In this document: piece by piece, positions 27,561 through 32,452 of the stretch | Layout of the letters: each line of letters starts with the position of its first letter | How positions within the stretch are numbered: position 1 is the first letter of the stretch | Assembly: GCF_003269275.1 (NCBI RefSeq) | Contig: NZ_QLTS01000004.1 | Coordinates: 92,802-156,801, forward strand | DNA length: 64,000 nucleotides | Direction: 5' to 3' | Origin: Phascolarctobacterium faecium DSM 14760 | GTDB lineage: Bacteria; Bacillota; Negativicutes; Acidaminococcales; Acidaminococcaceae | Notes under the pieces: model-generated | The model's input: only the letters and a program-made list of their open reading frames with translations | Told to the model about the DNA's origin: nothing | Databases searched by the model: none | Program-made: the position numbers and the translations under genes

Positions 27561-27989
27561 TCAAAGCGTTCCGTCTAAAATTTTCTGCGCTAACAGCTGA
27601 CGTTCCGATTCGCAAATATCGACCTTACCTGTTTCGATCGCTTTTTTATAAAAATCGCATTTGTAATTTATTGTTGCAAGTATTTTCTGCATTTGTGCTA
27701 TTTGTTCTTCTACGATAGCTTTGCGCTCTAAAAATAATTCATAACGCTGCGGTACCGTCGGCATACCTTCGATACACCATTCTATATATTGTTTTATTTC
27801 CTTCAAAGGCATACCGGTAGATTTTAAACATTCGATGGTATTAAGAAAAATCAAATCGCGATGGGTAAAGATGCGCTGGCCGTTCGGTTTGCGCTGTACG
27901 AAGGGAAGCAGTCCTTCATTATCATAATAACGCAGGGTATGGATAGAAACATTCATTATTTTGGATAATTCGCCGATAGTATAATTCAT
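27561..27989 (-). CDS. MerR-family regulator, AdhR/NmlR type
   Basis: 142 residues. The N-terminal winged helix-turn-helix (YTIGELSKIMNVSIHTLRYY, then GLLPFVQR) is classic MerR. Cys54 in IECLKSTGMPLKEI is in the position of the redox or aldehyde-reactive cysteine of B. subtilis AdhR and NmlR; three more cysteines lie further on (about 67, 110 and 124) but there is no SoxR iron-sulfur pattern. Coiled-coil dimer helix near 80-110. It is divergent from the five-gene operon at 28174-32452, whose promoter has the diagnostic 19-bp spacer with a palindrome. It probably activates that operon after modification by an electrophile. Confidence 0.9.
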   Translation of the reverse strand: MNYTIGELSKIMNVSIHTLRYYDNEGLLPFVQRKPNGQRIFTHRDLIFLNTIECLKSTGMPLKEIKQYIEWCIEGMPTVPQRYELFLERKAIVEEQIAQMQKILATINYKCDFYKKAIETGKVDICESERQLLAQKILDGTL

Positions 27990-28070
27990 GATTTACCTCC
28001 TTAAAAGAGCCGTGATAAAGCAAACAAGCCAACAGAGTTTTATTTTACAAATAGTTCACAAACAACACCC

Positions 28071-28101
28071 TTGACCTCGAGCTAGCTCGAGGATTTATGC
28101 T
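28071..28101 (+). promoter_or_regulatory. MerR-type promoter/operator of the cupin-hydrolase operon
   Basis: TTGACC (28071-28076), 19-bp spacer, TATGCT (28096-28101). The spacer holds the perfect 18-bp palindrome CCTCGAGCTAGCTCGAGG (28075-28092). Over-long spacer plus central dyad is the MerR activation architecture: the regulator untwists DNA to align -35 and -10. Confidence 0.92.
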
Positions 28102-28173
28102 GATTATAACAAATGAAAACAAAAAAGTAAATTGCTTTATCAGGTTTAGACAAAAATAAAAAGAGGTGAAGAA

Positions 28174-28656
28174 ATGTTAAAAAGCAAAACTAAAAAAATC
28201 ATGGCAGCGGCTGCCGGGATGCTGCTGCTGTGCAGTGTCGCCGCTGCGGAAACCGCCGGGCTGCAGACAGTTACGAAAGCCGGCAGTAATGCGACGGTGC
28301 AGGCGAACCCTAAAAATTTTACAGGCACAGCCTGGGCCACCAGTCTGTTCAGTGCCCACAGCCCTTCGAAAACTTACGCTGCAGTAGCAAGCTTTACCCC
28401 CGGAGCAAGAACTAACTGGCATATCCATTCTACAGGTCAGTCGCTGATCGTCACAGAAGGTTTTGGATATACGCAGGAATGGGGCAGGGAAATAGTTGCC
28501 CTGTACCCGGGCGATGTTGTCTGGTGTCCGCCGGGCGTCAAGCATTGGCACGGAGCTTCTTCCAATACATCGATGTCGCATATTGCGGTATCTGAAGTCA
28601 GTGACGAAGGCGTTACCTGGCTGGAAACGGTAACTGACAGGCAGTATCCTAAATAA
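28174..28656 (+). CDS. exported cupin-domain protein
   Basis: 160 residues with a signal peptide (cut near VAAAETAG). Single cupin barrel: metal-site motif WHIHSTGQSLIVTEG near 88-102 supplies two His, and PGDVVWCPPGVKHWHG near 111-126 the last His. This is the QdoI/YhhW-like small cupin shape often listed next to carboxymuconolactone decarboxylases. It probably binds a divalent metal in the periplasm; the reaction is unknown. First gene of the MerR-controlled operon, RBS GAGGTGA four nt before ATG, and 14 bp from the next gene. Confidence 0.87.
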   Translation: MLKSKTKKIMAAAAGMLLLCSVAAAETAGLQTVTKAGSNATVQANPKNFTGTAWATSLFSAHSPSKTYAAVASFTPGARTNWHIHSTGQSLIVTEGFGYTQEWGREIVALYPGDVVWCPPGVKHWHGASSNTSMSHIAVSEVSDEGVTWLETVTDRQYPK

Positions 28657-30467: not shown

Positions 30468-30528
30468 CCAGCAGCATTCAGCAGTAAAATAAATTGTATC
30501 AGCATGTTGAAGAAAGGAGTTTTTGTAT

Positions 30529-31359
30529 ATGCAGGACGTAATACTTTTAACTGGTGCCGGACAAATTGGCCTGGCGATCGCCAGAAGAATGGGTCATGGT
30601 AAAAAAATTGTAGTTAGTGATAAAAATATAAACAACGCCCAAACCGTAACTAAAATAATGGCTGAGGCCGGATTTGACGCTGTAGCGGTAGAAGCGGATA
30701 TTTCCTCGCGCAAATCAATTTTAAATATGATAGCTGCAGCGCAGAAATATGGTGAGATCGCAATGCTTATCAATGCTGCCGGGGTTTCACCCAGTCAGGC
30801 CTCTGTCGAAACTATTTTAAAAGTGGATCTATACGGTACAGCAGTTTTGTTGGAAGAAGTAGGAAAAGTGATCAAAGCTGGTGGTACTGGTGTTACGATA
30901 TCCAGCCAGTCTGGGCACAGAATGGCTGCCTTAGGTGCGGAAACAGACGAACAGCTTGCTGTTACACCGGCAGAAGAACTGCTGCAGCTGGAAGTATTAA
31001 AGCCGGCCAATATCAAAGACACACTGCATGCGTATCAAATGGCTAAACGCTGTAATGTAAAACGTGTAATGGCAGAAGCTATCAAATGGGGCGTAAAAGG
31101 TGCGCGTATAAACTCTATCTCGCCCGGCATTATCGTAACGCCGCTTGCGCTTGATGAATTTAACGGCCCCAGAGGAGAGTTTTATAAAAATATGTTTGCA
31201 AAATGCCCGGCAGGCCGCCCCGGAACGGCGGATGAAGTTGCCAACGTAGCCGAATTGCTGCTGAGCCAGCAGGGAGCATTTATCACCGGTGCAGATTTTT
31301 TGATTGATGGCGGCGCAACAGCAGCTTATTTCTATGGACCGTTAAAACCAGATAAGTGA
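30529..31359 (+). CDS. short-chain dehydrogenase/reductase
   Basis: About 276 residues, no signal peptide, so cytoplasmic. Rossmann motif TGAGQIGLAIA at the N-terminus, VEADISS, INAAGVS (NAG block), catalytic Ser in ISSQSG and YQMAK active-site Tyr-Lys, then the SPGIIVTPLA region and C-terminal DGGATA. It would reduce a carbonyl, or oxidise an alcohol, with NAD(P)H. ATG 30529 is preferred over TTG 30523 because AGGAG (30515-30519) is 9 nt upstream. It is the only operon member without a signal peptide, suggesting the pathway crosses the inner membrane. The 61-bp gap before it holds no clear terminator. Confidence 0.87.
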   Translation: MQDVILLTGAGQIGLAIARRMGHGKKIVVSDKNINNAQTVTKIMAEAGFDAVAVEADISSRKSILNMIAAAQKYGEIAMLINAAGVSPSQASVETILKVDLYGTAVLLEEVGKVIKAGGTGVTISSQSGHRMAALGAETDEQLAVTPAEELLQLEVLKPANIKDTLHAYQMAKRCNVKRVMAEAIKWGVKGARINSISPGIIVTPLALDEFNGPRGEFYKNMFAKCPAGRPGTADEVANVAELLLSQQGAFITGADFLIDGGATAAYFYGPLKPDK

Positions 31360-31369
31360 GGTGAGAGAG

Positions 31370-32452
31370 GTGCTTAAAGCAAAAGCGGCTAAAGTTTTAG
31401 CGCTGATGGTATTGACGTTTGCCGCAGCAACATCAGTTCAGGCCTTTGAAAAACCAGTTTTAATAGCCGAGCAGGGCAGTTTTGCCGCCGGCGGCACGGT
31501 AGTAAGATCTGACGGAAGTTTTAATTACAGGGTTCCGAGCGATCAGTCCGGCCAGTCGCTGCACGGAGATCACGCATATGTTTTTTATCAAAAGCCGGCT
31601 AAAGCTCATAAATATCCGTTAGTTTTTCTGCATGGTGCCGGGCAATCGGCTAAAACCTGGGAAACTACCCCTGATGGCAGAGATGGGTTTCAAAATATTT
31701 TTTTAGGCAAAGGCTACAGCACCTATCTTATTGATCAGCCTCGCCGCGGTAGAGCGGGGCAGTCAACGGCGGCAGAAAATATCAGTGCCGCCACCTATGA
31801 CCAGTTATGGTTCAGCAATTTCAGGTTGGGGAACTGGCCCGATTTTTTTGAGGGAGTACAGTTTTCAAAAAATCAGGAAGCGTTAAATCAGTTTTTCAGA
31901 CAAATGACTCCCAATACGGGTGCATTTGATGAAAATATTATCAGTGCTGCTGTAGCTGCAGTATTTGATAAATCTGGACCGGGAATTTTAGTTACCCATT
32001 CACAGGGGGGCGGTCCGGGCTGGCTGGCAGCTATAAAAAATCCTGAAATCCGTGCGGTCGTTGCCTATGAACCGGGCAGCGGGTTTATTTTTCCCGCAGG
32101 AGAGGTACCTGAACCGCTGGAAACCACAAGTCCTTTCGGAGCTTTAGCGGGAAGGGAAATAGCGTTAGAAGATTTTCAGAAGCTGACTAAAATACCAATA
32201 GTCATCTATTATGGTGATAACATTCCTGCTGTGCCTACAGCGGAATGGAACAAGGATAATTGGCGCGTGCGCTTACAGATGGCTCGCTTATTTGCAGATG
32301 CTGTCAACCGTCACGGCGGCGACGCTGCCGTGGTTCATTTACCGGAAATAGGAATAAAAGGCAACACGCATTTTCCGTTTTCGGATATGAATAATCAGGA
32401 AATAGCAGTGTTACTGGAAAAGTGGCTGCATGAAAAAAAACTGGATATTTAA
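31370..32452 (+). CDS. exported alpha/beta hydrolase
   Basis: About 360 residues with a signal peptide (MLKAKAAKVLALMVLTFAAA, cut near VQAFE). Hydrolase landmarks: VFLHGAGQSAKTW (oxyanion loop), YLIDQPRRGRAG, nucleophile elbow THSQGGGPG with Ser, and KGNTHFPFSD with the catalytic His near the end. The fold resembles esterase/haloperoxidase-like enzymes. Start GTG 31370 is preferred over GTG 31361 because GAGGTGA then lies at the same distance as in the operon's first two genes. Last gene of the MerR operon; the terminator follows directly. Confidence 0.85.
   Translation: MLKAKAAKVLALMVLTFAAATSVQAFEKPVLIAEQGSFAAGGTVVRSDGSFNYRVPSDQSGQSLHGDHAYVFYQKPAKAHKYPLVFLHGAGQSAKTWETTPDGRDGFQNIFLGKGYSTYLIDQPRRGRAGQSTAAENISAATYDQLWFSNFRLGNWPDFFEGVQFSKNQEALNQFFRQMTPNTGAFDENIISAAVAAVFDKSGPGILVTHSQGGGPGWLAAIKNPEIRAVVAYEPGSGFIFPAGEVPEPLETTSPFGALAGREIALEDFQKLTKIPIVIYYGDNIPAVPTAEWNKDNWRVRLQMARLFADAVNRHGGDAAVVHLPEIGIKGNTHFPFSDMNNQEIAVLLEKWLHEKKLDI

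What the first reader, a model, noticed from the sequence alone, without database searches (positions are those of the whole stretch)
27561..32452. MerR/AdhR-controlled five-gene envelope detoxification operon
Seen: a divergent MerR regulator with Cys54 in the AdhR/NmlR position, and five same-direction genes (cupin, CMD-like, alpha/beta hydrolase with Cys nucleophile, SDR, second alpha/beta hydrolase) closed by tandem terminators. Four products carry signal peptides and only the SDR is cytoplasmic. Known: AdhR in B. subtilis responds to reactive aldehydes and its regulon includes the CMD-family gene yraC. Inferred: this is a diderm-specific version in which carbonyl or lactone electrophiles are handled in the periplasm and finished by the SDR in the cytoplasm. 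I know of no described system with this exact composition.
Basis: partly seen in the sequence, partly recalled or inferred. Interest (0 to 1): 0.75.

Follow-up and report, generated by a model that had tools for sequence, protein, structure and literature searches.

The report
MerR-switched envelope electrophile-detoxification operon and regulon
A bacterium whose best-matching named gene cluster is from Phascolarctobacterium carries five same-direction enzyme genes behind a predicted MerR-type DNA switch whose sequence pattern is found at 12 places in its genome; the switch likely responds to reactive chemicals such as aldehydes or quinones, and four of the five enzymes are predicted to deal with them outside the cytoplasm.

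Summary
In detail: a divergent MerR gene (Cys54) faces cupin, CMD, Cys-nucleophile hydrolase, SDR and Ser-hydrolase genes, closed by two terminators. The six closest MerR relatives in the fetched loci keep Cys54 and this promoter type beside related genes. The operator pattern has 12 exact matches in this genome (0.02 expected; reversed control 0) and 377 in 95 of 150 genomes of its class (control 2). Of 31 sampled sites, 19 lead into flavodoxin, reductase, dehydrogenase, cupin, CMD or MerR genes, against 0 of 20 shifted regions. Against a fixed unit: all five families occur in 6 of 150 genomes; of 21 class loci with two or more core families, 4 have a close MerR and 9 an AraC gene; outside the class, 0 of 79 loci have a MerR match. 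Best reading: an NmlR/AdhR-like electrophile response wired to a widespread, mostly exported enzyme module. Inducer and substrates are untested. New variant of a known kind.

The parts
27561..27989 (-). MerR-family regulator, 142 aa, NmlR/AdhR-like, Cys54 (also Cys72, Cys111, Cys126)
   Evidence: Cys54 in 116 of the 120 homologues listed out of 308
28071..28101 (+). predicted operon promoter/operator: -35 TTGACC, 19-bp spacer, -10 TATGCT
   Evidence: one of 12 exact pattern matches in the genome
28075..28092 (.). perfect 18-bp palindrome, predicted MerR binding site; the only one in the 64-kb window
28103..28131 (-). conventional promoter-like site for the MerR gene itself (TTTACT-17-TATAAT), just beyond the operon promoter; its start point would fall in or near the operator
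   Evidence: consensus match only
28174..28656 (+). predicted exported cupin of the hydroxynitrile-lyase-like family; predicted metal ligands H83, H85, Q89, H124
   Evidence: residues kept in 31 of 31 relatives
28671..29381 (+). predicted exported two-domain CMD protein; E68, E71, G81, P83, E172, H192 kept, no CxxC
29403..30467 (+). predicted exported YcjY/PA2218-like alpha/beta hydrolase, Cys161-Asp301-His329
   Evidence: residues kept in 16 of 16 relatives
30529..31359 (+). SDR oxidoreductase (NF005395 subfamily), Tyr171/Lys175 in the 278-aa numbering; ATG start preferred over TTG 30523
31370..32452 (+). predicted exported esterase-713/4q34-like alpha/beta hydrolase, Ser214, Glu237, His337 (numbering from GTG 31361)
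   Evidence: Ser and His 17 of 17, Glu 16 of 17 relatives
32460..32492 (+). intrinsic-terminator-like stem 1
32500..32524 (+). intrinsic-terminator-like stem 2

Best explanation
The five genes are predicted to form one operon behind a MerR-type promoter with a 19-bp spacer and a perfect dyad, and the MerR protein likely senses reactive electrophiles through Cys54 and would then switch the operon on. Steps. (1) Shown: a divergent MerR with the Cys of the NmlR/AdhR position, and promoter-like sequence of MerR architecture between the two genes. (2) Inferred from the MerR paradigm: the dimer sits on the dyad; modification or ligand binding at Cys54 makes it untwist the over-long spacer so that RNA polymerase can use the promoter, and the same site would damp the merR promoter. 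(3) Predicted: cupin, CMD and both hydrolases are exported, so chemistry on carbonyl, quinone or ester/lactone electrophiles happens in the envelope, while the SDR reduces or oxidises what enters the cytoplasm. (4) Shown as pattern, inferred as function: the same operator type stands before flavodoxin, FMN-reductase, aldo/keto-reductase, Fe-alcohol-dehydrogenase, cupin and CMD genes in this genome and in many genomes of its class, so the operon is likely one branch of a larger redox/electrophile regulon served by several MerR paralogues. The window's own dyad (TCGAG-N4-CTCGA) differs from the common ones (TTGGAG or TTAAAG type), which suggests a private circuit.
For: Genes and families. Promoter and dyad. 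The six closest MerR relatives in the fetched loci (41-53% identity: L006, L098, L110, L114, L118, L119) keep the Cys and have a 19-bp-spaced dyad promoter before an operon with CMD, cupin, hydrolase, AKR, Fe-ADH or flavodoxin genes. Regulon: 12 exact operator matches in the genome, exact reversed control 0, Markov expectation 0.018; with one mismatch allowed, 17 against a reversed control of 1 and an expectation of 0.8. In the class, 377 sites in 95 of 150 genomes against 2 control hits. Downstream genes; sampled sites 19 of 31 against 0 of 20. Catalytic residues kept. Co-occurrence of the five families. Literature: the Cys52/54 of AdhR/NmlR is needed for the formaldehyde response, and AdhR controls adhA, yraA and the CMD gene yraC (PMC4776306, passages; PMC11577753, passages).
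Against: No expression, binding or enzyme data exist here. The MerR scores far below NCBIfam's NmlR cut-off (75 vs 175 bits), and no adhC/estD is in the operon. The enzyme module is more often beside an AraC gene (9 of 21 class loci) than beside a close MerR (4 of 21), and 0 of 79 loci outside the class have a MerR match in the DNA held. Two operator-linked MerR paralogues of this genome lack the Cys at this place (L096 Thr; L097 Lys, with a Cys one residue before), so the operator type does not by itself mean thiol sensing. Some sites precede what read by eye as nickel/peptide ABC or CbiM-like transporter genes, and another MerR, NimR, senses Ni(II) (PMC7055735, passages). Cys72 and Cys111 are also conserved (109 of 120; 106 of 116 ungapped), which could mean metal binding. 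The hydrolase residues fit ester/lactone catabolism equally well. 12 of 31 sampled regions had none of the expected families. In the window alone, with two mismatches allowed, 0.41 matches are expected by chance, so the weight rests on exactness and on the genome-wide counts.
Confidence: 0.52

Rival explanations
1. Envelope oxidant stress (hypochlorous acid, peroxide, disulfide stress) rather than carbonyls: the module scavenges or repairs oxidised compounds, with the hydrolases cleaning oxidised lipids.
For: On a Citrobacter plasmid a flavodoxin-DUF4405-cupin-CMD-hydrolase row, with an SDR gene four genes further on, follows genes annotated as a heavy-metal two-component system. A CMD gene is among those strongly up-regulated by HOCl in Burkholderia cenocepacia biofilms (PMC7464077, passages). 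Flavodoxin and FMN_red proteins occur in extracytosolic flavin electron transfer (PMC11334425, passages).
Against: The CMD lacks the AhpD CxxC pair (Cys80 in only 9 of 19 relatives). Cys52/54 MerRs are best documented for aldehydes (PMC4776306, passages).
Confidence: 0.21
2. A catabolic operon for plant-derived esters or lactones: hydrolases open the ester or lactone, CMD decarboxylates, SDR feeds central metabolism, and the MerR senses a pathway intermediate.
For: DLH-like and CMD domains and an SDR together; a coniferyl-alcohol dehydrogenase model matches the SDR, below its cut-off (95 vs 242 bits).
Against: No transporter, ring-cleavage enzyme or CoA ligase among the five genes. The PcaC model is not reached (76 vs 156 bits). 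The regulon partners are mostly reductases and flavodoxins.
Confidence: 0.14
3. Metal-responsive MerR: Cys72, Cys111 and Cys/His126 bind a metal, and the operon makes metal-dependent enzymes.
For: These residues are conserved in close homologues; transporter operons that read by eye as nickel-type carry the same operator; NimR is a nickel-sensing MerR; the cupin has a predicted metal site.
Against: No metal transporter or efflux gene in the operon; CadR, ZntR, CueR and MerR models score far below cut-off.
Confidence: 0.09
4. The operator pattern is only a generic promoter with an AG..CT accident.
For: It contains -35 and -10 hexamer bases.
Against: 12 exact against 0.018 expected; the reversed pattern gives 0 in this genome and 2 against 377 in the class; a version one base shorter gave no exact match and one with a mismatch; a 19-bp spacer is not optimal for RNA polymerase alone (PMC9909328, passages).
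Confidence: 0.02

Closest known systems
AdhR (YraB) regulon of Bacillus subtilis (adhA-yraA, yraC)
   Same: Small MerR with a Cys in the 52/54 place, control of a CMD gene (PMC4776306 and PMC11577753, passages)
   Different: No thiol-dependent alcohol dehydrogenase or YraA-type protein in the operon; here a predicted exported cupin, CMD and two hydrolases plus an SDR
NmlR-adhC-estD of Haemophilus/Neisseria
   Same: Divergent MerR next to a detoxification operon; the closest solved structures include 3gpv (named NmlR in PMC5045206) and 5e01 (HI_0186; that this is the Haemophilus NmlR is recalled)
   Different: Fails the NmlR equivalog cut-off; no AdhC; hydrolases not annotated as S-formylglutathione hydrolase
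Cupin-CMD-hydrolase clusters of Pseudomonas, Burkholderiales, Rhizobiaceae and enterobacterial plasmids
   Same: Same cupin, CMD and hydrolase families side by side
   Different: No MerR match in 79 of 79 loci; in the two annotated records viewed, a two-component pair and a LysR gene stand nearby; SDR of this family in 3 of 79
Extracytosolic flavodoxin/FMN_red/DUF4405 electron-transfer clusters (PMC11334425)
   Same: Flavodoxin_4 and FMN_red families, which share the operator here
   Different: That paper has no mention of cupin in its main text; ApbE-type flavinylation was not examined here

Membership tests
NmlR/AdhR regulators | MerR fold with Cys at position 52/54 | tested here: met
NmlR/AdhR regulators | Score above the NCBIfam NmlR cut-off | tested here: not met
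   75 vs 175 bits
NmlR/AdhR regulators | Adjacent adhC-type (thiol-dependent) dehydrogenase | tested here: not met
   operon content; Fe-ADH or AKR stands first in some relatives
NmlR/AdhR regulators | Activation by aldehydes through the Cys | not testable with these tools
   needs experiment
MerR-family activated promoters | 19-20 bp spacer with a palindrome between -35 and -10 | tested here: met
   rule from PMC9909328 (passages)
Cupin hydroxynitrile lyase (NF049940) | Curated score and four metal-ligand residues | tested here: met
   159 vs 140 bits; residues 31 of 31 relatives; their ligand role is recalled
Cupin hydroxynitrile lyase (NF049940) | Lyase activity | not testable with these tools
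   needs assay
AhpD thiol peroxidase | CxxC active site | tested here: not met
   single Cys80, in 9 of 19 relatives; motif recalled
4-carboxymuconolactone decarboxylase PcaC | Score above cut-off | tested here: not met
   76 vs 156 bits
UilS quorum-quenching lactonase | Score above cut-off | tested here: not met
   73 vs 400 bits
YcjY/DLH-like hydrolases with Cys nucleophile | Cys-Asp-His residues | tested here: met
   16 of 16 relatives; 5xb6 match; triad roles recalled
SDR subfamily NF005395 | Score above cut-off | tested here: met
   449 vs 280 bits

The most novel reading that the evidence does not exclude
Negativicutes run a class-wide, MerR-switched envelope electrophile stimulon: one dyad-in-a-19-bp-spacer promoter grammar, read by several small MerR paralogues with their own half-sites, drives exported flavodoxins, cupins, CMD proteins and Cys- and Ser-hydrolases that neutralise reactive carbonyls or quinones before they reach the cytoplasm. 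The exported cupin-CMD-double-hydrolase unit is a mobile detoxification cassette that other genomes have wired to AraC, LysR or two-component sensors.
Probability: 0.33. Interest if true: 0.72.

Novelty: new variant of a known kind. Interest (0 to 1): 0.56.

Why it matters
The cupin, CMD and hydrolase families cluster together in several phyla, and the listings of my ten text searches showed no function for the set. Here they sit behind a regulator type with a known kind of trigger and a promoter that can be recognised by eye, so the inducer can be asked for directly with a reporter. If the reading is right, anaerobic diderm Firmicutes defend against electrophiles in the envelope, and the part of CMD proteins in aldehyde responses, called undefined for YraC (PMC4776306, passages), becomes testable.

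Tried and rejected
The AhpD-peroxidase reading of the CMD protein was rejected (no CxxC). 'Fixed five-gene unit' was rejected: all five families in 6 of 150 genomes, 5 if only first-hydrolase relatives at 55% identity or more count; gene order and partners vary. 'Class-specific enzymes' was rejected. 'MerR is the usual partner' was rejected: AraC is commoner in the class loci. The sigma-70 scanner did not list the operon promoter because it allows only 16-18 bp spacers. My first operator pattern was one base too short; in hindsight it serves as a mis-spaced control (no exact match, one with a mismatch). ORF calls on the high-GC Proteobacteria loci were poor, so tblastn counts were used. Ten literature searches were answered; none of the listed titles and abstracts was about this gene set, but three listings were cut (8 of 16, 8 of 12 and 25 of 61 papers), and most subscription papers are not held. 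The B. subtilis AdhR operator could not be checked because the paper is not held. No structure predictions or fold searches were run.
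Full report
What is there. The window holds a MerR gene on the minus strand (27561-27989) and, divergent from it, five genes on the plus strand ending at 32452. Pfam and NCBIfam place them as cupin (mandelonitrile-lyase model above its cut-off), two-domain CMD, DLH/YcjY-like hydrolase, SDR of subfamily NF005395 and Abhydrolase_6. Nearest solved structures are 4bif/4uxa for the cupin, 4g9q for the CMD, 5xb6 (YcjY) and 2hdw (PA2218) for the first hydrolase, 4q34, then 8gol and its kin, and the 1qlw esterase for the second, and the MerRs 3gpv, 5d90, 5d8c and 5e01 for the regulator. 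Spacing is short throughout and two terminator-like stems follow the last gene.

Catalytic state. Relatives were taken from the fetched loci with identity floors (cupin 38%, CMD 40%, first hydrolase 55%, second 50%) and length floors. Cupin H83, H85, Q89 and H124 are kept in 31 of 31; the first hydrolase's Cys161, Asp301 and His329 in 16 of 16; the second hydrolase's Ser214 and His337 in 17 of 17 and Glu237 in 16 of 17; CMD E68, E71, E172 and H192 in 19 of 19, but Cys80 in only 9 of 19. The roles of these residues are recalled from the families. So the enzymes look active, and the CMD is not an AhpD-type peroxidase.

The switch. Between the two divergent genes lies TTGACC, 19 bp, TATGCT, and this stretch carries CCTCGAGCTAGCTCGAGG, the only perfect 18-bp palindrome in the 64 kb. 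A 19-20 bp spacer with a palindrome is typical of MerR-regulated promoters (PMC9909328, passages). Among 24 MerR-like genes in 46 fetched loci (23 distinct, since L114 and L137 overlap), the Cys54 equivalent is present in 20 of 23; the exceptions are two paralogues of this same genome (L096, L097) and L103. The six closest (41-53% identity) all keep it, and all six have a 19-bp-spaced dyad promoter before an operon with related genes. Their order differs: CMD-hydrolase-hydrolase in L006 (a Phascolarctobacterium bin), hydrolase-cupin-flavodoxin-CMD in L098, Fe-ADH-cupin-CMD-hydrolase-hydrolase in L114 (its CMD shows only a 121-aa frame), AKR-CMD-hydrolase in L118, Fe-ADH-flavodoxin in L119, and cupin-CMD downstream of MerR in L110. 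In a protein search the 120 listed of 308 homologues have Cys54 in 116 (3 gaps, 1 Leu), Cys72 in 109 of 120 and Cys111 in 106 of 116 ungapped.

A regulon. The pattern TTGACNTNNAGNNNNCTNNANNNNNTANNNT was made from the window and relatives and searched in the whole genome. It has 12 exact matches; the pattern read backwards has none, and a first-order Markov model from 173 kb of this genome expects 0.018. With one mismatch allowed there are 17 matches, the control has 1, and 0.8 are expected. Downstream of the 12 exact sites (Fe-ADH named): a DUF362 protein, a MerR, a membrane protein followed by an AKR, an FMN reductase, a cyclophilin-like protein, a cupin followed by an Fe-ADH, a MerR followed by a CMD, two flavodoxins with signal-like starts, a metallophosphatase, the window operon, and an operon that reads by eye as a peptide/nickel ABC transporter (not run through Pfam). 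A one-mismatch site precedes a further MerR-facing CMD gene (C3); others look like chance. In 150 genomes of the window's class there are 377 exact sites in 95 genomes against 2 for the reversed pattern (sum). Of 31 sampled sites, 19 lead into a flavodoxin, FMN reductase, DUF362, AKR, Fe-ADH, cyclophilin-like, cupin, CMD, hydrolase or MerR gene; leaving out four sites in loci that had supplied the family set (L185, L192, L199, L205), 15 of 27. None of 20 control regions shifted along the same contigs held any of these families. The window operator differs from most others in its half-site (TCGAG/CTCGA), as does that of its closest relative L098 (TCAAG/CTTGA), which is why I propose a private circuit inside a shared grammar. 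Nine PF13411 matches exist in the genome, so several regulators could share the work.

Distribution of the enzymes. In 150 genomes of the class: cupin 76 (E 1e-10), first hydrolase 70 (E 1e-20; 22 at 55% identity or more), second hydrolase 36, SDR 29 (E 1e-40), CMD 22. The loose cupin and hydrolase counts include paralogues. All ten pairs of the five families co-occur above expectation, for example SDR with second hydrolase 21 against 7.0 expected (p 4e-10), the weakest being CMD with SDR (9 against 4.3, p 0.01); genomes are related, so these p-values overstate. SDR and second hydrolase are direct neighbours also in G098 and G029. All five families occur in 6 of 150. Of 39 class loci (own paralogue loci and one duplicate left out; loci were chosen for a cupin or hydrolase match), 21 hold two or more core families: 4 of these have a MerR at 40% identity or more, 14 any MerR match, 9 an AraC gene and 1 a LysR gene (AraC named). 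In the own family, CMD of this kind is in 4 of 59 genomes, so the operon is patchy and perhaps exchanged. Outside the class, of the 80 best CMD loci all but L006 were counted: 79 loci hold cupin nearby in 61, second hydrolase in 46, first in 41 and all four genes on one strand within 5 kb in 32; a MerR match was found in 0 of 79 and the SDR in 3 (some loci are short). The second hydrolase has matches on 88 of 72,556 plasmid records. A Citrobacter plasmid has two-component genes, flavodoxin, DUF4405, cupin, CMD and hydrolase in a row and an SDR gene four genes on; a Sinorhizobium plasmid has hydrolase-hydrolase-CMD-cupin, with LysR and AKR genes further along.

Export. A simple hydrophobicity test marks all four window products and not the SDR. 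Among relatives it marks CMD 18 of 19, first hydrolase 13 of 16, second 13 of 17, cupin 15 of 31 and SDR 0 of 2. This is a heuristic with machine-called starts, so export of the cupin is the weakest of the four.

How it likely works. The anatomy supports an activator circuit: MerR on the dyad, held shut by the over-long spacer, opened by a signal at Cys54. For AdhR and H. influenzae NmlR the equivalent Cys is needed for the formaldehyde response, and AdhR controls a CMD gene whose contribution was called undefined (PMC4776306, passages). The regulon partners are largely reductases and flavoproteins suited to carbonyl or quinone chemistry; extracytosolic flavodoxin, FMN_red and DUF4405 proteins have been tied to electron transfer outside the cytosol (PMC11334425, passages). 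I therefore commit to an electrophile response with mostly exported enzymes. The inducer, the substrates, binding and export are inferred. Oxidant stress is the strongest rival, then lactone catabolism, then metal sensing.

Limits. Only one genome of the window's genus is held. Literature statements rest on passages or search listings, not on whole papers.

Noticed in passing
Own genome C13:40359 (L164), also L178, L181, L175: The same MerR-type operator stands before operons that read by eye as peptide/nickel ABC transporters and a CbiM-like gene, as if a NimR-like branch shares the grammar.
   Followed up: partly
window 27561-27989: Cys72 and Cys111 of the MerR are nearly as conserved as Cys54, and position 126 is His or Cys in most homologues; no role is known to me.
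   Followed up: partly
window 25545-27418: PAPS-reductase/DUF3440 gene overlapping a ParB-like gene, an IbrA/IbrB-like pair by recall.
   Followed up: no
window 32828-36657: Small HTH regulator directly before a 1118-aa autotransporter-like protein; a similar HTH gene next to a long frame lies at C13:38199 (L164).
   Followed up: no
L096 6424-7685 and L097 6360-7187: Two more MerR-CMD pairs in the same genome, both MerRs without a Cys at the sensor place (Thr and Lys).
   Followed up: partly
L226 (Citrobacter freundii plasmid, 1888-11901): Genes annotated as a heavy-metal two-component system, then flavodoxin, DUF4405, cupin, CMD and hydrolase in a row, with an SDR gene four genes on.
   Followed up: partly
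L099, L100, L101, L102, L105, L106, L111, L112, L127: In nine class loci an AraC_N-type regulator, not a close MerR, stands with the cupin/CMD/hydrolase genes.
   Followed up: partly
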